From Pseudorhodoferax sp. Leaf274 (GTDB taxonomy: Bacteria; Pseudomonadota; Gammaproteobacteria; Burkholderiales; Burkholderiaceae_C), in assembly GCF_001422445.1 (NCBI RefSeq), contig NZ_LMNA01000001.1, positions 1,162,735-1,226,734 on the forward strand: 64,000 nt of DNA. The letters run 5' to 3'. Both the position numbers and the translations under genes were made by a program. Of the stretch, positions 5,927-20,136 are shown one piece after another; positions within the stretch are counted from its first letter, which is position 1, and each line of letters opens with the position of its first letter. The notes below the pieces were generated by a model. The model did no database searches. It worked only from the letters and a program-made list of their open reading frames with translations, and had not been told where the DNA came from.

Positions 5927-8346
5927 CGCTGCACCCGCCGCGCTGGTGGCTGGCCCAGCTGCACTGGCTGCTGGGCATCACCGCCGGCACGGTGCTGGTG
6001 CTGGTCGGCCTGACGGGGGCGCTGATGGCCTTCCGCGCCGAGATCGTCGAGGCGCTGCATCCCCAGCTGTTCCAGCGCGCAGCGCCCACGCCGCAAGCGC
6101 AGCCGCTGGCACCCGCCGATCTGGTGGCGCGCCTGCAGGCGGCCGCTGGCGCGCGCGTGCAGACGCTCACCTTGCACGCCGCGCCTGGCCGGCCCGTGCG
6201 CGTGGGCTTTGCGCCCGCGCCCGGCGCGCGCCGTGGCGCGCAGCACTGGGCCGACCCGTGGACGGCCGAGCTGCTGCCCGAGCCGCGTGCCGATGCGCTG
6301 TTCGAGCCCGTCGAGGCGCTGCACCGCTGGCTGCTGCTGCCGCGCGAGGCCGGCAAGCTCGCCACCGGCACGCTGGCCGCGGCATTGCTGCTGCTGGCAC
6401 TGAGCGGCCTGGTCCTGCGCTGGCCGCGGCGCCCGCTGGACTGGCGTGCCTGGCTGCGGCTGGACTGGCGGCTGCGCGGCCGCGCCTTCCTGTGGAACCT
6501 GCACGCCGTGGCCGGCACGCTGGCCCTGCTGTGCTACCTGGTGTCGGGCCTGACGGGCGTGTACTGGGGCTTTACGGTGGTGCGCACGGCCATCGACGCG
6601 GCGGCCGGCGAAGGCCAGGCGGCACGCGCCGAGCGCACCGGGCGCGGCGCCGATGCCGCGGCGGCCGCAGCCGCAGCCGCGCAGCCGCCCGACCTCGGCC
6701 GGCTGTGGCAGGGCTTCCTGCAGGCCAGCGGCGGCGACTGGAGCCAGGTCACGCTGCGCCTGCCGGCACGCGCCGCGCCGCGCGTCGAACTCACCTACCT
6801 GCGCGCCGCGCCCGAGCACGACCGTGCCCGCAACCGCCTGTACCTGGACGCCGCCACCGGCGCGGTGGCCGAGCACCGACGCTATGCCGAGCTGCCGCTT
6901 GCCAACCGGCTGCTCAACAGCGTCTACCCGCTGCACACCGGCAGCTACTGGGGCTGGCCGGGCCGCGTGGCGATGGCGCTGGCCGCGGCCGCGCTGGCGC
7001 TGTTCGCGGCCACCGGCTGGTTGCTGTACCTGGACCGGCGCCGTGCCCAGGCGGCCGTGCGCGCCGAGCAGCAGCGCCTGGGCGCCGGGCCGACGGGGGG
7101 CGCTGGCGGCGGTGCCGATGGCGATGGCGATGGCGTGCTGGTGGCCTACGCCAGCCAGACCGGCCGGGCCGAGCGCATCGCCTGGCAGACGGCTGCGGCC
7201 CTGCGCGATGCGGGCCTGGCGGCCCAGGTCCGGTCCCTGGCCGGGCTGGCACCCGCCGAACTGCTCCGCCACCCGTGCGTGCTGCTGGTGGCCAGCAGCT
7301 TCGGCGAAGGCGAGGCGCCCGACGCCGTGCGCGGCTTCGCCCGGCGCCTGGCGCAACTGGCGGCGCCGCCGCAGGCCGCGCCGGCCTACGGCCTGCTGGC
7401 GCTGGGCAACCAGCAGTACCCCGCGTTCTGCGGCTTCGGCCGTGCGCTGGACGGGCAGTTGCGGCGGCTCGGCGCGCAGGCCCTGTTCGCGCCGGTGGAG
7501 ATGGACGATGGCGATGCCGGCGCGCTGGCCCGCTGGCGCCACAGCGTTGGCACCGCCTTCGGCCGCGCGCTGGGCGGCCTGGCCGCGCCGGACGAGGCGC
7601 CGTGGCTGGCCGCCACGCTGGCCGGCCGCCGGCTGCTCAACCCCGGCAGCCAGGGGGGGCCGCTGGTGGAGGTGGCGCTGGCGCTGCCACCCGGCACGCA
7701 CTGGGCGCCCGGGGCGCTGGCCGAGGTGCTGGTGGCCGACGGCACCGCGCCGCGCAGCTACTCGGTGGCCTCGCTGCCCGCCGATGGCCCGCTGCAACTG
7801 CTGGTGCGCCAGCAGCAGCGCGCCGACGGCAGCCTGGGCCTGGCCTCGGGCTGGCTGACGCAGGCCGCGCCCCTGGGGACGCCGGTGCGCCTGCGCCTGC
7901 TGGGCAACCCGGGCTTCGCGCTCGTGGACGACGCGCGGCCCTGCATCTTCATCGGCAACGGCTCGGGCTATGCCGGGCTGCGTGCGCACCTGCGCGAACG
8001 CGCGCGCCGCGGCCACGGCCGCAACTGGCTGCTCTACGGCGAGCGCCAGGCCGCGCACGACGCCTTCGTGCAGCACGACGTGCAGGCCTGGCAGGCGGCG
8101 GGCCTGCTGGCGCGCGCCGACCTGGCCTACTCGCGCGATGGGGCCGGGCCACGCTACGTGCAGCACAGCCTGCGCGCCGCGGCCGGCCTGCTGCGCCAGT
8201 GGATCGACGAGGGGGCGGTGCTCTATGTCTGCGGCAGCCTGGCCGGCATGGCACAGGGCGTGGACGAGGCGCTGTGCGAGATCCTGGGTCCGGACGCGCC
8301 GCAGACGCTGGCCGCGGAAGGGCGCTACCGGCGGGACGTCTACTGA
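5923..8346 (+). CDS. PepSY membrane domain fused to flavodoxin and FAD/NAD(P)H reductase (ferric-reductase-like)
   Basis: An 807-residue inner-membrane flavoprotein. The N-terminal half is a PepSY-associated helix domain with membrane segments near residues 16-38, 145-165, 190-215 and 345-367. A flavodoxin domain follows (YASQTGRAERIA from 408), then a sulfite-reductase-type FAD domain (PRSYSVAS near 610) and an NAD(P)H domain (FIGNGSGYAG near 675, CGSLAGMAQGV near 770). Electrons from NAD(P)H would pass through FAD and FMN across the membrane, plausibly to reduce siderophore-bound iron. I chose the TTG at 5923, which overlaps the receptor stop by four bases; no ATG fits. The role is inferred from pairing with the receptor. 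Confidence 0.85.
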   Translation: MTLHPPRWWLAQLHWLLGITAGTVLVLVGLTGALMAFRAEIVEALHPQLFQRAAPTPQAQPLAPADLVARLQAAAGARVQTLTLHAAPGRPVRVGFAPAPGARRGAQHWADPWTAELLPEPRADALFEPVEALHRWLLLPREAGKLATGTLAAALLLLALSGLVLRWPRRPLDWRAWLRLDWRLRGRAFLWNLHAVAGTLALLCYLVSGLTGVYWGFTVVRTAIDAAAGEGQAARAERTGRGADAAAAAAAAAQPPDLGRLWQGFLQASGGDWSQVTLRLPARAAPRVELTYLRAAPEHDRARNRLYLDAATGAVAEHRRYAELPLANRLLNSVYPLHTGSYWGWPGRVAMALAAAALALFAATGWLLYLDRRRAQAAVRAEQQRLGAGPTGGAGGGADGDGDGVLVAYASQTGRAERIAWQTAAALRDAGLAAQVRSLAGLAPAELLRHPCVLLVASSFGEGEAPDAVRGFARRLAQLAAPPQAAPAYGLLALGNQQYPAFCGFGRALDGQLRRLGAQALFAPVEMDDGDAGALARWRHSVGTAFGRALGGLAAPDEAPWLAATLAGRRLLNPGSQGGPLVEVALALPPGTHWAPGALAEVLVADGTAPRSYSVASLPADGPLQLLVRQQQRADGSLGLASGWLTQAAPLGTPVRLRLLGNPGFALVDDARPCIFIGNGSGYAGLRAHLRERARRGHGRNWLLYGERQAAHDAFVQHDVQAWQAAGLLARADLAYSRDGAGPRYVQHSLRAAAGLLRQWIDEGAVLYVCGSLAGMAQGVDEALCEILGPDAPQTLAAEGRYRRDVY

Positions 8347-15009: not shown

Positions 15010-15645
15010 ATGAATTCCATCCGCGCCCTGATCTTCGACTGCGACGGCACGCTGGTCGACAGCGAGCCCTGGCTCGTGGAGGCCATGCTGGCCGAGGGCG
15101 CGTTGCACGGATTGCCTGGAGCGGCACGCGAAGTGCTGGACGCCCAGCGCGGCGCGCCCATGTCGCGCCAGATCGCCGTGGTGGCCGCGCGCAGCAGCCA
15201 GCCGCTGCCGGCCGACTTCGAAGACCGCGTGCGCGCGCGCATGGCCGGCTACTTCAAGGCCCACCTGCAACCCATCGAAGGTGCGCTGGAGCTCGTGCGC
15301 GGCCTGCAGCTGCCGTTCTGCGTGGCCTCCAACGGCCCGCGCCACAAGATCGAACTCGTGCTGGGCCTCACGGGCCTGCTGCCCTGGTTCGAGGGCCGCA
15401 TCTTCAGCGCCTACGACATCGGCGCCTGGAAGCCGGCACCCGACCTGTTCCTGCACGCCGCACGCGCGATCGGCTTCGCGCCCGCCGAATGCGCGGTGGT
15501 CGAGGACAGCGCCTCGGGCATCGCGGCGGGCATTGCCGCCGGCATGCGCGTGTTCGCGCTCGGCGAGCACCCGGCCGATCTGCCATCCTCGGTGCGGCGC
15601 ATCGCCAGCCTGTCGGCCCTGCAGGGCAGCCTGGCCGCGCACTGA
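15010..15645 (+). CDS. HAD-family phosphatase / phosphoglucomutase-like hydrolase
   Basis: A 211-residue HAD hydrolase of the beta-phosphoglucomutase/YfbT subgroup. Motif I is DCDGTLVDSE (residues 10-19, two nucleophile/acid aspartates), motif II is the CVASNGP segment, motif III the lysine in GAWKPAPD, and motif IV VVEDSASGI. Members remove phosphate from, or isomerise, sugar phosphates. The ATG at 15010 gives the normal family start; the frame extends upstream but into the previous gene. The 58-base gap before it contains a GC-rich sequence resembling the start of the 84-bp repeats found near 56700. It belongs to the RpiR-linked operon. Confidence 0.87.
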   Translation: MNSIRALIFDCDGTLVDSEPWLVEAMLAEGALHGLPGAAREVLDAQRGAPMSRQIAVVAARSSQPLPADFEDRVRARMAGYFKAHLQPIEGALELVRGLQLPFCVASNGPRHKIELVLGLTGLLPWFEGRIFSAYDIGAWKPAPDLFLHAARAIGFAPAECAVVEDSASGIAAGIAAGMRVFALGEHPADLPSSVRRIASLSALQGSLAAH

Positions 15646-15692: not shown

Positions 15693-16718
15693 ATGCGTCA
15701 CCACCCCTACCCCGCCGCCACGCGCCGCACCGTCCTGCAACAGGGCCTGGCCGGCGCCGCGGGCATCGCCGCGGCCATCGCCAGCCCGCAGGGCTTCGCC
15801 CAGGGCGCCGCCTGGCCCAACAGGCCCGTCACGCTGGTCGTGGGCTACCCGCCCGGCGGCCAGACCGACTTTGCCGGCCGCATGGTCACCACCGGCATGC
15901 AGACCGTGCTGGGACAGGGCGTGGTCATCGACAACAAGGCCGGCGCGGGCGGCAACATCGGCACCGACAACGTCGTGAAGGCCGCGCCCGACGGCTACCG
16001 CCTGCTGGTGGGCAACGGCAACATCACGCTGAACCCGCACACCTACCGCAACACGGCCATGGCCGACCCGCTCAAGCTGGTGCCCATCGGGCTGCTGCTG
16101 ACCTCCTCGCTGGTGCTGGCGGTGCCCAACACGGTGCCGGCCAAGAACGTCAAGGAGTTCATCGAGTGGGTGAAGGCGCAGGACAAGGCCGGCAAGGACA
16201 TCGACTACGCCAGCGCCGGCCCCGGCAGCCTCACGCACGCCAGCATGGAGCTGTTCCGCGACCGCATCGGCAAGCCCAAGATGAACCACGTGCCCTACAA
16301 GGGCAGCGGCCCGGCCATGACCGACCTGATCTCGGGCCGCGTGAGCGCCATGTTCGACGCCGCCTCGGTGGTCGCGCCCTTCATCAAGTCGGGCCAGCTG
16401 CGCCCGCTGCTGGTCACGGGCGCCAAGCGCGTGCCGGCCTTCCCCGACATCCCGACCGCGGCCGAGAGCGGCGTGAAGGACTTCGAGGTGATCTCCTTCA
16501 TCGGCCTTTATGGCCCGCCCGGCCTGCCGGCCGACATCGTGGCCAAGGCCAACGGCGCGATGAACACCGCGCTGAAGGACCCCAAGATCCAGGCCGGCAT
16601 CCTCGAACGCGGCGACGAGCCCGGCGGCGGCACGCCCGAGCAGCTGGCCAAGTTGACGCGCTACTACTTCGACCTGTGGCGCGACATCGTGAAGGCGAAC
16701 GACATCCGGGCGGAGTAG
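15693..16718 (+). CDS. Bug-family tripartite tricarboxylate transporter substrate-binding protein (second of operon)
   Basis: A 341-residue periplasmic Bug receptor. The N-terminus has a Tat-like TRRTVLQQGLAGAAGIAAAI signal region ending before QGAAWPNRP. Family marks are VTLVVGYPPGGQTDFAGRMV, IDNKAGAGGNIGTDNVVKA and HVPYKGSGPAMTDLISG. It is preceded by aggagacaac, a strong ribosome-binding site. It is the last gene of the operon and differs markedly from the first Bug gene, so the pathway may draw in two related solutes, or one receptor may act as a sensor. No membrane permease is adjacent. Confidence 0.92.
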   Translation: MRHHPYPAATRRTVLQQGLAGAAGIAAAIASPQGFAQGAAWPNRPVTLVVGYPPGGQTDFAGRMVTTGMQTVLGQGVVIDNKAGAGGNIGTDNVVKAAPDGYRLLVGNGNITLNPHTYRNTAMADPLKLVPIGLLLTSSLVLAVPNTVPAKNVKEFIEWVKAQDKAGKDIDYASAGPGSLTHASMELFRDRIGKPKMNHVPYKGSGPAMTDLISGRVSAMFDAASVVAPFIKSGQLRPLLVTGAKRVPAFPDIPTAAESGVKDFEVISFIGLYGPPGLPADIVAKANGAMNTALKDPKIQAGILERGDEPGGGTPEQLAKLTRYYFDLWRDIVKANDIRAE

Positions 16719-16888
16719 GGCGGAGTCCAGGCTTGCGACCTGCCTGCACACAGGGTGTGCGGGTTGGCGCGGGCGATGGCTCCGAACATGGGTCTCACGC
16801 TTCGGGCGGGCATCCAGGGCGACAGGCCATCGCGCCCGCCCAAACGGCGAGAATCGCGGCTCTTTTTGCCCTTTCTCCCAGCGCGCCC

Positions 16889-17386
16889 GTGTTCGAACAG
16901 ACCTTCAAAAACATCGACGACATCCTGCACAAGGATGCCGGCTGCACGAGTGAACTGGACTACACCGAGCAGTCGTCCTGGCTGCTCTTTCTGAAGTACC
17001 TGGACGCTCTGGAGCAGGACAAGGCGGCAGAGGCCGAACTGGAAGATCTGGTGGACGCACTGCGTTTCGGCTCGCAGACCGAGAAGCACGAGCTCTCGCA
17101 CCTGTACGAAGCCAAGATCAAGAATATGGGCAACGCCGGGCGCAACGGCGGCGAGTACTACACGCCCAGACCGCTGATCCGCGCCATGGTCAAGGTGCTG
17201 GACCCGAAGATCGGCGAGCGCATCTATGACGGTGCCCTCGACGGCACGGGCTTCGATTTGTCGGTGAAAAACCCGAATGGCGGCGGCGAAGTGGTGCTGC
17301 GCTCACCCGCTGAAATCCTGGATGGGATTGCGGCGCTGGATGCCGAGATCGCGAAGGTGCTGGCGGTGATCAGGGGCCTGGTATGA
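16889..17386 (+). pseudogene. hsdM: Internally deleted type I restriction methyltransferase subunit (mini-HsdM)
   Basis: A 165-residue open frame that begins at GTG (VFEQTFKNIDDIL) and matches three separated parts of type I HsdM: the extreme N-terminus (to about residue 53), a central piece (LVDALRFGSQTEKHELSHLY to GERIYDGA) and the last 50 residues (TGFDLSVKNPNGG to VLAVIRGLV). About 100 and about 270 residues are missing at the two joins, compared with my memory of intact HsdM proteins near 500 residues. The SAM-binding and NPPF catalytic motifs are gone, so it cannot methylate. Both deletions keep the frame. Its stop overlaps the YhcG start (ATGA). No hsdS or hsdR is seen. Confidence 0.8.
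17315..17383 (+). repeat. HsdM tail, copy A (direct repeat with 18522-18590)
   Basis: This segment encodes the last residues of mini-HsdM (ILDGIAALDAEIAKVLAVIR). A diverged copy lies just after the nuclease gene at 18522-18590. The two can be aligned without gaps over 23 codons and share GAT-N3-ATTGCGGCG and ATCAGGGG blocks. Confidence 0.75.
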
Positions 17387-18513
17387 CGCAAAAGCGTGCC
17401 ATCAAGCCGGCAGCGACGGCGGCCGCGCGGGGGGCAGGCGATGACCCTTTGTACGCCCGCATCCACGCGCTGGTGCTCGCGGCCCGGCAATCCGTGGCAC
17501 GCGGCGTCGACCTCGTCCAGGTGCGCACCTGCTTCGAGATCGGGCGCCACATCGTCGAGCACGAGCAAGGTGGGCAAGGGCGTGCCGCCTACGGGCAAGC
17601 CTTGCTCAAGGGCTTGGCCGAGCGCCTGACGCAGGCCTTCGGGCGCGGCTTTGCCAAGAGCAACCTTGAGTACATGCGGCGCTTCTACCTGGCCTATGCA
17701 AGCCGTGCAGACATCGCCCAGTCGCCAACTGGGCGATCGGGCGCCGCCGATTCCGCCACGGCAATTGCCCAGTTTTCAACTGGGCCATTGCAAGCTGCTG
17801 CCCCCTTCAGCCTGAGCTGGACGCACTACGTCTTTCTGCTGGGCATCAACAACCCGGACGAGCGCAGCTTCTACGAGATCGAGGCCAGCCAGCAGGGGTG
17901 GAGTCTGAAGCACCTGCGCCGGCAGTTCGACAGCGGGTTGTTCGAACGCCTGGCCCTGAGCCGCGACAAGGACGGGCTGCGCCAGCTGGCGCAACAAGGC
18001 CATGTCGTGGCCCGGCCGGAGGACATGCTCAAAGAGCCCCTGGTGCTGGAATTCCTGGGCCTGTCGGAACAGGCCGGCTACTCCGAATCCGACCTGGAGG
18101 CCGCCGTCATCAACCAGATCGGCCAGTTCCTGCTGGAACTCGGCAAGGGCTTCTTGTTCGAGGCGCGGCAAAAGCGCTTCAGCTTCGATGGCGACCACTT
18201 CTTCGTCGACCTGGTGTTCTACAACCGCCTGCTGCGCTGCTATGTGCTGATCGATCTGAAGCTGGGCAAGCTGACCCACCAGGACCTCGGGCAAATGCAG
18301 ATGTACGTGAACTACTTCGACCGCCACGTGAAGACCGAGGCCGAAAACGCCACCGTCGGCATCGTGCTGTGCAAGAAGAAGAACGAGGCCCTGGTGGAAA
18401 TCACCCTGCCCACCGACGCCAACATCCATGCGCGGGAGTACAGCTTGTACTTGCCGAGCAAGGAGGAATTGCGGGCGAAGTTGCGGGAGTGGACGGACGG
18501 GAGTGGCGAATGA
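17383..18513 (+). CDS. YhcG/DUF1016-family PD-(D/E)xK nuclease
   Basis: A 376-residue protein of the YhcG (DUF1016) family. The N-terminal DUF1016 domain (about residues 20-200) contains FEIGRHIVEHEQGGQGRAAYG and SWTHYVFLLGI; the C-terminal nuclease domain has the catalytic set D276 (FVDLVFYN) and D291-x-K293 (IDLKLGKL), followed by QMQMYVNYFD. These proteins sit in or near type I restriction loci and on mobile elements, and are thought to act on DNA in defence or repair; the reaction is not firmly known. It overlaps the mini-HsdM stop by four bases, so translation is coupled. Residues 107-130 form a low-complexity linker with a repeated IAQSPTG/IAQFSTG element. Confidence 0.9.
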   Translation: MTQKRAIKPAATAAARGAGDDPLYARIHALVLAARQSVARGVDLVQVRTCFEIGRHIVEHEQGGQGRAAYGQALLKGLAERLTQAFGRGFAKSNLEYMRRFYLAYASRADIAQSPTGRSGAADSATAIAQFSTGPLQAAAPFSLSWTHYVFLLGINNPDERSFYEIEASQQGWSLKHLRRQFDSGLFERLALSRDKDGLRQLAQQGHVVARPEDMLKEPLVLEFLGLSEQAGYSESDLEAAVINQIGQFLLELGKGFLFEARQKRFSFDGDHFFVDLVFYNRLLRCYVLIDLKLGKLTHQDLGQMQMYVNYFDRHVKTEAENATVGIVLCKKKNEALVEITLPTDANIHAREYSLYLPSKEELRAKLREWTDGSGE

Positions 18514-18596
18514 GCAGGCGCATGCGGGATGACATTGCGGCGCGGGATGGGCAGGGCGCTCAAGTGTTGGCGACGATCAGGGGAATCATGGCGTGA
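18510..18596 (+). CDS. 28-residue ORF homologous to the HsdM C-terminal tail
   Basis: A short frame that starts at an ATG overlapping the nuclease stop (ATGA) and ends RDGQGAQVLATIRGIMA. It aligns with the last residues of mini-HsdM (AALDAEIAKVLAVIRGLV), sharing DxxIAAxD and VLAxIRG. It is probably a fossil of a second hsdM 3' end rather than a functional peptide, although the overlap would permit translation. Confidence 0.45.
   Translation: MSRRMRDDIAARDGQGAQVLATIRGIMA
18522..18590 (+). repeat. HsdM tail, copy B (direct repeat with 17315-17383)
   Basis: The second, more diverged copy of the HsdM 3' end, immediately downstream of the YhcG nuclease gene. With copy A it brackets the nuclease gene, which suggests the nuclease arrived as a module or that one hsdM end was duplicated during rearrangement. 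The following 175 bases up to 18771 show no gene. Confidence 0.7.
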
Positions 18597-18771
18597 GAGC
18601 TGATGGGTCCATCGCGCCGCTGAGTGAGGTCTGCGCTATCAAGCCCCCCAAGGCTGAAGCACGAGCGGTGCTCGGTAGCGGCGACGCCGTTTCCAGCGCC
18701 ATCTGTGCGTGACCTGACGCAGGGGCAACTGAGCTTGCCTGCTGGGCGCCGATGTATTGACGCCAGGCCTT

Positions 18772-20136
18772 TCATGCCAGCGCTTCGCGCACGGCATGCA
18801 ACGCCCGCCCGCAGTCGTCGCGCGTGAGCCCGCCACCCAGGCACAGCCGCAGCGCTTCGGGCGGTTGCCGGTCGGTCGAGAAGGCCGTGCCGTCCACCGC
18901 GGCGATGCCCAGCGCGCGCAGCTCGGCCGCGATGCGCGTGGCCGGGCTGCTCTCGCTGTCCGAGGCCGGCACCGGCAGCCAGCCATGGAAGCCATGCGGC
19001 TGCGTGCGCACGCCGTGCGGGCCCAGCACCTGGCGCATCTGCGCGCTGCGCCAGGCGCATTCGGCGCGCACGGCCTGCAGCACGGCTTCGGCCTGGCCGC
19101 TCTCCATCCAGTTCGCCACGATGGCGTTGACCAGCGGCGAGGCCATCACGGTGGTCGCGCGCAACGCGCCGGCCAGGCGCAGGTGCGCCGCGGCGGAGGG
19201 CGCCTGCACGTAGGCCAGGCGCAGGCCCGCGCCCAGCCACTTGGACATGCCGCTCACGTAGTAGACGAGGTCGGGCGCGAACTCGGCCATGGACGGCGGG
19301 ATCGCGGCCGGCAGCATGCCGTAGGCATCGTCCTCGATGAGGGGGATGCTGTAGCGCAGCGCAATGTCGGCGATCTGCTCGCGCCGCTTGATCGGCAGCG
19401 TGGCCGTGGTCGGGTTGTGCAGGTTGGGGCACAGGTGCAGCGCGCCGATGGGCGTGCTCTTGCAGGCGGCCTCGAACTCGTCGGGCAAGAGGCCGTGTTC
19501 GTCCATGGCCAGCGGGTGCAGGCGCATGCCCAGCTGCGCGGCGATGGCCTTGATGCCCGGGTAGGTCAGCGCCTCCACGCACAGGCTCTGGCCCGGCTTG
19601 ACCAGCAGCGAGACCAGCGCCAGCAGCACGGCATGGATGCCGGGCGCCACCAGCACGCGCGCGGCATCGGCCTCGACCCACTGCGACATCCATTGCGCAC
19701 CGAGCGCGCGGTCGCGCGGCGTGCCGCCGAAGTCCTGGTAGCGCATGAGGTCGTGCAGCGGCACGGCCGCCAGGCCCGCATTGGCACCCTCCAGCAGCGC
19801 CTGCATGGCCGGGTGCTCCTCGATCTCGGGCGGCATGTTCATGGTCATCTCGGCGCCCGTGCCGGCGCGCAGCGGCAGGCCGATGAAGGAGCCGCGCACG
19901 AAGGAACCCATGCCGGGCCGCGAGGCGATCAGCCCGCGCTCGCGTGCCTCGGCAAAGCCGCGCACCACGGTCGTGTAGTTCAGCTGCAGCCGGGTGGCGA
20001 GCTCGCGCAGCGGCGGCAGCCGTTCGCGCGGGGCCAGGCGGCCCTGCTGCAGGTCCTCGGCGATGAGGTCGGGGATCAGCTGGTAGGCCGGCAGCGGGCT
20101 GGACTTGAGGCGGTGGACCCAGTGGGCGAAGGGCAT
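18772..20136 (-). CDS. MocR-family regulator (GntR wHTH fused to PLP aminotransferase domain)
   Basis: A 454-residue MocR/PdxR-type protein. The N-terminal GntR winged helix (residues 15-82) contains RLPPLRELATRLQLNYTTVVRGF and a RPGMGSFV wing. The aminotransferase-fold domain has N241 (HNPTT), the PLP-contacting aspartate in IEDDAYG near 270, and the PLP lysine K299 in SGMSKWLGAG, so PLP binding is expected. I chose the ATG at 20136, which starts the winged helix; the frame is open further upstream. It is divergent from the Nit1C cluster with 282 bases between, containing repeated TTGATYG elements, and is the obvious candidate regulator of that cluster. Confidence 0.87.
   Translation of the reverse strand: MPFAHWVHRLKSSPLPAYQLIPDLIAEDLQQGRLAPRERLPPLRELATRLQLNYTTVVRGFAEARERGLIASRPGMGSFVRGSFIGLPLRAGTGAEMTMNMPPEIEEHPAMQALLEGANAGLAAVPLHDLMRYQDFGGTPRDRALGAQWMSQWVEADAARVLVAPGIHAVLLALVSLLVKPGQSLCVEALTYPGIKAIAAQLGMRLHPLAMDEHGLLPDEFEAACKSTPIGALHLCPNLHNPTTATLPIKRREQIADIALRYSIPLIEDDAYGMLPAAIPPSMAEFAPDLVYYVSGMSKWLGAGLRLAYVQAPSAAAHLRLAGALRATTVMASPLVNAIVANWMESGQAEAVLQAVRAECAWRSAQMRQVLGPHGVRTQPHGFHGWLPVPASDSESSPATRIAAELRALGIAAVDGTAFSTDRQPPEALRLCLGGGLTRDDCGRALHAVREALA

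What the first reader, a model, noticed from the sequence alone, without database searches (positions are those of the whole stretch)
16889..18596. Mini-HsdM with two in-frame deletions coupled to a YhcG nuclease and flanked by a duplicated HsdM tail
Seen: an open frame joins three separate HsdM segments, losing the catalytic motifs without a frameshift, and overlaps the YhcG gene. A diverged copy of the HsdM 3' end lies just after YhcG, in a 28-residue frame that also overlaps. Two in-frame deletions plus preserved coupling suggest either retention of a non-catalytic HsdM (for example as a structural partner) or a staged decay. The direct repeats give a footprint of how the nuclease entered the locus.
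Basis: partly seen in the sequence, partly recalled or inferred. Interest (0 to 1): 0.65.

Follow-up and report, generated by a model that had tools for sequence, protein, structure and literature searches.

The report
Eroded restriction locus keeping YhcG nuclease
A bacterial immunity operon has decayed around one gene, the nuclease YhcG, which stays intact behind a shrinking, still-readable stub of its old partner gene, and YhcG-type genes (including that of E. coli) turn out to carry hidden DNA palindromes inside their coding sequence.

Summary
16889-17386 is HsdM cut from about 484 to 165 codons by two in-frame deletions; it overlaps yhcG (17383-18513), and a diverged HsdM tail follows (18510-18596). 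An hsdS start remnant at 18593-18706 was missed. Of five congeners held, three have the site empty, one is too diverged to judge, and Pseudorhodoferax aquiterrae has yhcG at the same site but only a 37-codon in-frame hsdM stub. yhcG is under purifying selection (dN/dS 0.10). So this is staged decay around a kept nuclease; a structural-partner HsdM is not supported. The stub may be a translated leader: inferred, not shown. The tail duplication recurs: 5 of 36 hsdM-yhcG loci against 1 of 164 other yhcG loci; insertion with long target duplication is known for restriction systems.

Unexpected: yhcG's linker holds 25-nt palindromes whose arms vary but stay complementary. They occur in 182 of 195 genes sampled, and three times in E. 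coli K-12 yhcG. Covariation is 0.459 against 0.114 shuffled. The pattern has 91 sites inside yhcG and none in 1.13 Mb around it. Three literature searches showed no mention.

The parts
16717..18777 (.). whole insert between tctC and a MocR-type regulator gene; absent from congeners G002, G003 and G004
   Evidence: in G002, G003, G004 the left flank (ends at about 16717) and right flank (starts at about 18777) lie 11-18 bp apart; sequences
16889..17386 (+). mini-hsdM (165 codons), HsdM with two in-frame deletions
17315..17376 (+). first copy of the duplicated HsdM 3' end; ends in AGGGG, 6 nt before the yhcG ATG
   Evidence: D1; ribosome-site reading is by eye
17383..18513 (+). yhcG (DUF1016_N + YhcG_C, PD-(D/E)XK nuclease family), intact, dN/dS 0.10 against P. 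aquiterrae
17713..17737 (.). intragenic palindromic unit 1 (10 of 11 pairs)
   Evidence: (D2)
17764..17788 (.). intragenic palindromic unit 2 (10 of 11 pairs)
   Evidence: (D2)
18510..18596 (+). 28-codon frame holding the second, displaced HsdM tail; ATGA overlap with yhcG, GTGA overlap with the hsdS remnant
   Evidence: (score 55)
18522..18583 (+). second copy of the 62-nt direct repeat
   Evidence: D1
18593..18706 (+). hsdS 5' remnant (38 codons; residues 10-34 colinear with HsdS of Methylomagnum)
   Evidence: E 9e-5; no Pfam match
15693..16718 (+). left neighbour: TctC-type binding protein gene
18772..20136 (-). right neighbour: MocR/GntR-aminotransferase type regulator (name by eye)

Best explanation
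A type I restriction-modification operon of the order hsdM-yhcG-hsdS-hsdR inserted between tctC and a MocR gene in an ancestor of two Pseudorhodoferax species (shown: same site in two species, empty in three). Earlier, yhcG had entered that operon at the 3' end of hsdM, which left two copies of the hsdM tail: one finishes hsdM and carries the stop/start overlap for yhcG, the other carries the overlap for hsdS (anatomy shown, history inferred). hsdR and nearly all of hsdS were lost, hsdM is eroding, and yhcG is kept by purifying selection as a stand-alone nuclease (selection shown, activity inferred). Each hsdM deletion in these two species keeps the frame into the ATGA overlap. I infer that the hsdM stub persists as a translated leader that delivers ribosomes to yhcG by translational coupling, as hsdM does for hsdS in EcoKI. 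The polypeptide made from the stub probably has no function.
For: Congener at the same site: flanks 89-92%, yhcG 89.5% identical, hsdM reduced to an in-frame 37-codon stub ending in the same GTATGA. Empty site in G002, G003, G004. yhcG dN 0.039, dS 0.403, ratio 0.097 over 367 codons. hsdM-yhcG-hsdS-hsdR order with the same HsdM type in L070 and L075, a tail copy after yhcG in both (weak in L070). Third eroded case: L083 keeps about 22 HsdM codons and a GTGA overlap before yhcG, with no other convincing HsdM match. No HsdS or HsdR of this system elsewhere: Methylase_S and HSDR_N hits lie only on contig C12, beside an unrelated HsdM. EcoKI hsdM-hsdS coupling through an overlap: PMC3510504 (abstract and passages).
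Against: Coupling was not tested, and yhcG has its own AGGGG upstream. In-frame deletions happen one time in three by chance; the unbiased cases (P. aquiterrae, G062) are only two. L070 and L081 carry an in-frame stop in hsdM although yhcG is intact, so an unbroken hsdM frame is not always needed. In P. aquiterrae a one-base length difference in a G run shifts the frame just after the yhcG ATG, so there yhcG must start downstream or the assembly is wrong. Other remnants of this hsdM type are frameshifted or truncated (G863, G924, G791, G848, G208). Complete conservation of 72 invariant positions leaves room for a function of the mini-protein.
Confidence: 0.75

Rival explanations
1. Mini-HsdM is a functional non-catalytic partner (scaffold or antitoxin-like) of YhcG and is kept by selection.
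For: No deviation at 72 positions that are invariant in 26 full-length HsdMs (two of which, L070 and L081, contain one in-frame stop), outside the deletion junction. Both deletions in frame and coupling preserved.
Against: Missing from the sister species at the same locus. No HsdM-like gene recognised directly upstream of yhcG in 164 of 200 loci. Domain broken, low predicted fold confidence (only 7 sequences).
Confidence: 0.1
2. The whole locus, yhcG included, is a decaying relic with no present function.
For: hsdM, hsdS and hsdR are lost or broken; the P. aquiterrae yhcG start region is frameshifted.
Against: yhcG dN/dS 0.097 between two species with dS 0.40; the conserved E..D..DxK residues are present; a long open frame in both.
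Confidence: 0.12
3. The tail duplication arose when a donor hsdM-yhcG segment replaced part of a resident hsdM, by homology on the left and an illegitimate join on the right, and not by insertion of yhcG with a target duplication.
For: Tail copies differ in length (about 14 to 56 residues) between loci. The window's second tail scores higher with other HsdMs (65) than with its own first tail (54).
Against: In 4 of 5 loci the second tail is closest to its own first tail. In the window the first tail may simply have drifted.
Confidence: 0.4

Closest known systems
Type I restriction-modification hsd operons (hsdM-hsdS overlap, EcoKI)
   Same: HsdM of this type at 63-84% identity over the kept parts; stop/start overlaps; hsdS remnant in the original position.
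   Different: M is non-catalytic, S is a 38-codon stub, R is absent; only an accessory nuclease is kept.
YhcG / DUF1016 nucleases (PF06250 + PF17761; PADLOC candidate PDC-S02)
   Same: Full-length member (E 7e-51 and 2e-36; PDC-S02 E 3e-134).
   Different: Ordinary member; the 2005 survey (PMC1189080, passages) reported type I linkage only in Methanosarcina acetivorans, here 36 of 200 sampled genes follow an HsdM-like gene.
Insertion with long, variable target duplication by restriction systems (Nobusato 2000, not read; described in PMC3031569 and PMC1643837, passages)
   Same: An inserted gene flanked by direct copies of a piece of the target gene.
   Different: Here an accessory gene inside the operon, with the duplicated piece at the 3' end of hsdM.
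PARCELs (PMC2996958, abstract) and Rickettsia palindromic elements (PMC10969869, passages)
   Same: Palindromic DNA inside coding sequence, in variable copy number.
   Different: The yhcG units are 25 nt, most often at 39-nt spacing, confined to one gene family as far as looked, with arms that covary; PARCELs are 25-residue amphipathic repeats in many ORFs, RPEs are about 150 bp and dispersed.

Membership tests
functional type I methyltransferase (HsdM) | complete N6_Mtase domain with SAM and NPPF motifs | tested here: not met
   N6_Mtase matches only model positions 3-60 of 311; NPPF region deleted
functional type I methyltransferase (HsdM) | cognate HsdS | tested here: not met
   38-codon remnant only; the genome's Methylase_S hits lie on contig C12
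type I restriction system | HsdR in the locus | tested here: not met
   single HSDR_N hit on contig C12; empty-site comparison leaves no room
YhcG/DUF1016 | DUF1016_N plus YhcG_C domains | tested here: met
YhcG/DUF1016 | PD-(D/E)XK residues (E, D, D/E-x-K) | tested here: met
   E252/E260, D276, D291-x-K293 invariant in 20 sequences; which E is catalytic not tested
YhcG/DUF1016 | PD-(D/E)XK fold | tested here: inconclusive
   model pLDDT 66.7; best PDB neighbours EndoMS and RecE at E 0.02-0.03, none at 0.001; no PDB sequence match
YhcG/DUF1016 | nuclease activity, phage defence | not testable with these tools
   -
insertion with long target duplication | direct repeats of target sequence flank the insert | tested here: met
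   recurrence
insertion with long target duplication | single copy of the repeat in the allele without the insert | tested here: inconclusive
   yhcG-less hsdM-hsdS operons of other species have one tail (0 of 29 adjacent pairs with a second copy scoring 50 or more); no allele of the same locus available
PARCEL / RPE | dispersed in many unrelated genes | tested here: not met
   91 pattern sites inside yhcG, 0 in 1.13 Mb of flanks; window stem occurs nowhere else in the genome

The most novel reading that the evidence does not exclude
The yhcG gene itself is a nucleic-acid device. Its linker encodes one to seven 25-nt inverted repeats (ATT-NNN-CAGAC-NNN-GTCTG-N'N'N'-AAT, most often 39 nt apart) whose middle letters are free to change as long as both arms change together, so the encoded residues covary only because the DNA strand must pair with itself. 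These hairpins or cruciforms are kept because YhcG, a nuclease predicted to resemble Holliday-junction resolvases, recognises them in its own gene (autoregulation, self-cleavage, or mobility and reshuffling of the units).
Probability: 0.3. Interest if true: 0.85.

Novelty: new variant of a known kind. Interest (0 to 1): 0.6.

Why it matters
The decay series shows how an accessory nuclease outlives the restriction system that carried it, and gives a testable idea of why the dying gene in front stays in frame. The tail duplication gives a recognisable scar of how accessory genes enter hsd operons. The palindrome array matters more if it holds up: a widespread gene family of unknown function, present in E. 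coli K-12, has coding sequence shaped by pairing of its own strand, with arms that differ between strains of one species. That gives an uncharacterised nuclease a concrete candidate substrate or operator that can be tested at once in a laboratory strain.

Tried and rejected
Dispersed-repeat origin of the palindromes: rejected, no site of the pattern outside yhcG in the loci and only the two window units in the genome. Codon-level chance: rejected, 231 hairpins in 195 yhcG genes against 26.9 from codon shuffles, while 84 hsdM genes gave 16 against 13.9 and 187 other ORFs gave 44 against 37.5. Selection of units on pairing itself (circular): avoided by choosing 159 units on peptide only. Sense-mRNA hairpin: not favoured, because at the variable positions of single-mismatch units A.C (19) exceeds G.T (4); codon preferences may explain this, so I do not rely on it. 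Known RNA family: none, best Rfam matches far below gathering score.

'yhcG-linked hsdM decays more often': 4 of 7 against 6 of 30 defective by my hand count (contig-edge copies dropped), p 0.07, with unequal ways of finding the two sets; not claimed. Flanking-repeat hits L092 and L282, and tail hit L252, judged unrelated to the insertion pattern by their sequence and position; L288 is flanked by copies of what I recall as a dispersed family repeat; L271 not resolved. One gene in the dN/dS run (HAD, 15039-15645) was taken in a wrong frame and is ignored. L144 shows a tail copy, but one search took another upstream frame for it, so it stands among the 164 as a missed case.
Full report
What is in the sequence. 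The frame 16889-17386 encodes 165 residues that match full-length HsdM of an Aquincola plasmid (NZ_CP097637) in three colinear pieces, residues 1-52, 141 to about 210 and about 442-484. Its stop overlaps the start of yhcG by ATGA. yhcG (376 aa) has both Pfam domains of its family. Its stop overlaps by ATGA a 28-codon frame, and nucleotides 18522-18583 repeat 17315-17376 at 74%. The repeat scores 44, against at most 33 in 934 placements elsewhere in the window. Beyond it, in a frame that overlaps the 28-codon frame by GTGA, lies the start of an HsdS: 25 residues colinear with residues 10-34 of the HsdS of Methylomagnum (E 9e-5 in a small set; no Pfam match; E 0.4 in the whole plasmid collection).

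The locus in relatives. Of the five other species held, G002, G003 and G004 have the left and right flanks 11-18 bp apart, so the 2.06-kb insert is absent. In G005 the flanks were too diverged to judge. G001 has the insert at the same place. There hsdM runs for 37 codons: the first 22 or so and the last few remain, the frame is open and ends in the same GTATGA before yhcG; the second tail and the hsdS remnant are gone. Over the 22 shared hsdM codons there are 8 non-synonymous and 4 synonymous differences. For yhcG, dN is 0.039 and dS 0.403 (ratio 0.097, 367 codons). Flanking tctC and MocR genes have dS 0.22 and the next gene 0.15, so yhcG is older or faster at silent sites than its neighbours, which I cannot explain. 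A one-base length difference in a run of G shifts the yhcG frame just after its ATG in G001; a GTG lies downstream in the good frame. Sequencing error is possible.

Age of the window's deletions. At 75 of 165 mini-HsdM positions all 26 full-length HsdMs of this type agree (two of the 26, L070 and L081, contain one in-frame stop); the window differs at 3, all inside the second deletion junction. Neutral drift since the split from P. aquiterrae should have produced many changes (about 16, a rough estimate from half the flank dS). So the deletions are recent, or the stub is constrained. If recent, the two species lost hsdM independently.

Source operon. Loci with HsdM of this type directly followed by a YhcG of 65-72% identity, then HsdS and HsdR, are L070 (betaproteobacterial MAG) and L075 (Lindowbacteria MAG); L077 and L081 are similar, L081 without HsdR in the fetched stretch. 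L070 and L081 have one in-frame stop in hsdM. L070 and L075 also have an HsdM-like tail between yhcG and hsdS: clear in L075 (score 58), weak in L070 (38); I saw none in L077 or L081. The second tail therefore predates the decay.

How general is the tail duplication? I collected 223 yhcG ORFs, 201 unique, 198 with usable flanks. Direct repeats across yhcG scored 40 or more in 12 of 198, against 0 of 2,961 mismatched pairs. Not all 12 are hsdM tails: L092 and L282 look unrelated, L133 and L140 repeat the start of another methyltransferase (gene name by eye), L288 is flanked by what looks like a dispersed repeat, L271 and L142 are unresolved. At protein level, 36 of 200 yhcG genes have an HsdM-like gene recognised directly upstream. 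A second tail scores 55 or more in 5 of these 36 (L084, L266, L253, L075 and the window) and in 1 of 164 others (L092). The control 99.5% level is 44; 3 of 1,992 controls reach 55, the highest 77 (Fisher p 0.0008). The 164 are not free of HsdM traces: at least five have an HsdM-type tail upstream, and one of them, L144, has a tail copy after yhcG that one search missed. Among 84 HsdM genes sorted by what follows, scores of 50 or more occur in 5 of 39 with yhcG (one of them, L252, judged spurious; the window is not in this set), 0 of 16 with another insert and 0 of 29 with hsdS adjacent; controls reach 50 in 5 of 663. One non-yhcG insert (L293) shows a short exact tail copy scoring 43, so the scar may not be special to yhcG. 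In 4 of 5 loci the second tail is closest to its own first tail; in the window it is not. Insertion with long and variable target duplication is described for restriction systems (passages of PMC3031569 and PMC1643837).

Why the stub stays in frame. In EcoKI, hsdS translation is coupled to hsdM through an overlap (PMC3510504, abstract and passages). In the window each gene-to-gene step has such an overlap, and each HsdM tail carries AGGGG shortly before the next start (6 nt before yhcG, 9 nt before the hsdS GTG, by eye). A third eroded locus, L083 (Acidobacteriaceae MAG), keeps only about 22 HsdM residues and a GTGA overlap before yhcG. A fourth, G062, has an in-frame 44-codon hsdM stub 3 nt before an unrelated gene. 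Other remnants of this hsdM type are out of frame or truncated: G863, G924, G791, G848, G208. The leader idea explains why hsdM 3' ends persist, but the number of independent unbiased cases is small and no expression was measured.

The nuclease. The E, D and D-x-K residues expected of the PD-(D/E)XK superfamily are invariant in 20 aligned sequences. The AlphaFold model (pLDDT 66.7) has a helical N-domain, a disordered linker at residues 110-138 and a mixed sheet C-domain. Its top PDB neighbours include PD-(D/E)XK enzymes (EndoMS, RecE; class recalled), but none is significant at 0.001. The 2005 survey assigned YhcG to the superfamily, near Holliday-junction resolvases (PMC1189080, passages). 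PADLOC lists the family as defence candidate PDC-S02.

An unexpected feature of yhcG. The linker of the window gene holds two near-perfect inverted repeats, 17713-17737 and 17764-17788. As single-stranded DNA this stretch folds at z -4.5. Across 195 yhcG genes, perfect hairpins (stem 8 or more) number 231 against 26.9 expected from codon shuffles; 84 hsdM genes give 16 against 13.9 and 187 other ORFs 44 against 37.5. Units of the form 11-3-11 with at least 9 pairs, in frame and at 0.2-0.5 of the gene, number 274: 106 perfect, 100 with one and 68 with two mismatches. They lie in 182 of the 195 genes (recounted per gene; one search had counted 180 loci). Copies per gene are 1 (117 genes), 2 (50), 3 (8), 4 (5), 6 (1) and 7 (1). 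The commonest spacing is 39 nt (38 of 92 intervals), then 48 nt (16). The consensus is ATTNNNCAGAC-NNN-GTCTGN'N'N'AAT.

Pairing, not protein, explains the variation. I chose 159 distinct units by peptide motif only. Their outer arms, not used for the choice, pair at 3.96 of 6 positions, against 2.34 (sd 0.084, maximum 2.58 in 1,000) when right arms are dealt out among units. Eighteen different middle codons occur with perfect arms. On 52 units, one for each of 52 of the 80 named loci, the covariation score is 0.459 against 0.114 (sd 0.015; 0 of 500 shuffles), and 0.112 or less when the partner is slid by 1-3 columns; 104 cells have a change on both sides against 34.5 (0 of 500). Two weaker measures: pairs with a change on both sides 9 against 7.0 (8 of 500 shuffles reach it), further pair types 23 against 20.9 (69 of 500). 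Sites of this pattern: 91 inside yhcG, 0 in 1.13 Mb around it. The window's stem GCCCAGTN5ACTGGGC occurs in the 6.7-Mb genome only at these two places. Two units of one gene share the middle triplet more often (24% of 147 pairs) than units of different genes (8%).

E. coli. yhcG of MG1655 has three units 39 nt apart with 10, 10 and 11 of 11 pairs; as RNA the stretch folds at z -9.85. In E. coli, 4,417 of 5,426 genomes match yhcG and 3,310 cover at least 80%. In 11 alleles that I read, of 13 loci fetched, the first unit is perfect in 9, with two unrelated arm sets (CGCC/GGCG in 7, GTGC/GCAC in 2). The second unit differs between two otherwise similar alleles by changes on both arms. Two alleles lack units two and three (78-80 nt shorter; the 1,048-nt one is annotated as frameshifted). 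In one strain an IS1 copy abuts yhcG inside the third unit; in two others yhcG homology ends at its last base. These are few, so a breakage hot spot is only a suggestion.

What the palindromes could be. Free but complementary arms mean that a strand pairs with itself, or that one arm is copied onto the other by template switching (a mutational process recalled for E. coli quasipalindromes). The first suggests cruciform or hairpin recognition, perhaps by YhcG itself; the second needs no function, though presence in 182 of 195 genes, archaeal ones included, argues for one. I cannot separate these here. The sample was gathered by similarity to the window's YhcG and by one Pfam search, so it is not a random sample of DUF1016. 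I searched the paper library for YhcG with palindrom (4 papers; passages read in 3; none describes intragenic units; PMC4316617 seen in the listing only), DUF1016 with inverted repeat (0) and intragenic palindromic repeats with nuclease family (1 unrelated paper, listing only). PARCELs and Rickettsia palindromic elements are the nearest precedents.

Verdict. As posed, the finding is a well-observed but ordinary case of restriction-locus decay with a useful scar; alone I would give it about 0.35. The palindrome array in yhcG lifts the whole to 0.6.

Noticed in passing
17713-17737 and 17764-17788; L352 (E. coli K-12 yhcG) 6131-6155, 6170-6194, 6209-6233: Intragenic palindromic units with covarying arms in the yhcG linker, found across the family; treated at length in the report.
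   Followed up: yes
L053 (P. aquiterrae), yhcG start: A G-run length difference shifts the frame just after the yhcG ATG; sequencing error, or a new start downstream.
   Followed up: partly
window yhcG against P. aquiterrae: Silent divergence of yhcG (dS 0.40) is about twice that of both flanking genes (0.22) although the site is shared.
   Followed up: no
L133 5874-5940 and about 7117-7183; L140: yhcG flanked by two copies of the start of another DNA-modification gene (name by eye), a mirror image of the hsdM-tail case.
   Followed up: no
L288, L276, L071, L072, L025: yhcG of several relatives is bordered by what looks like one dispersed family repeat (ATAGCTGCTTGCGCA / TGCTATCAAATT); function and link to yhcG unknown.
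   Followed up: no
L186 3696-3830 (G062): Another hsdM shrunk in frame to 44 codons, 3 nt before a putative ATPase gene (name by eye), with no yhcG recognised there: the stub-before-accessory-gene pattern may be wider.
   Followed up: partly
G000:C12:409839-415347: An unrelated type I system (HsdM, HsdS, HsdR hits) is present elsewhere in the genome; a second yhcG lies at C1:422987.
   Followed up: no
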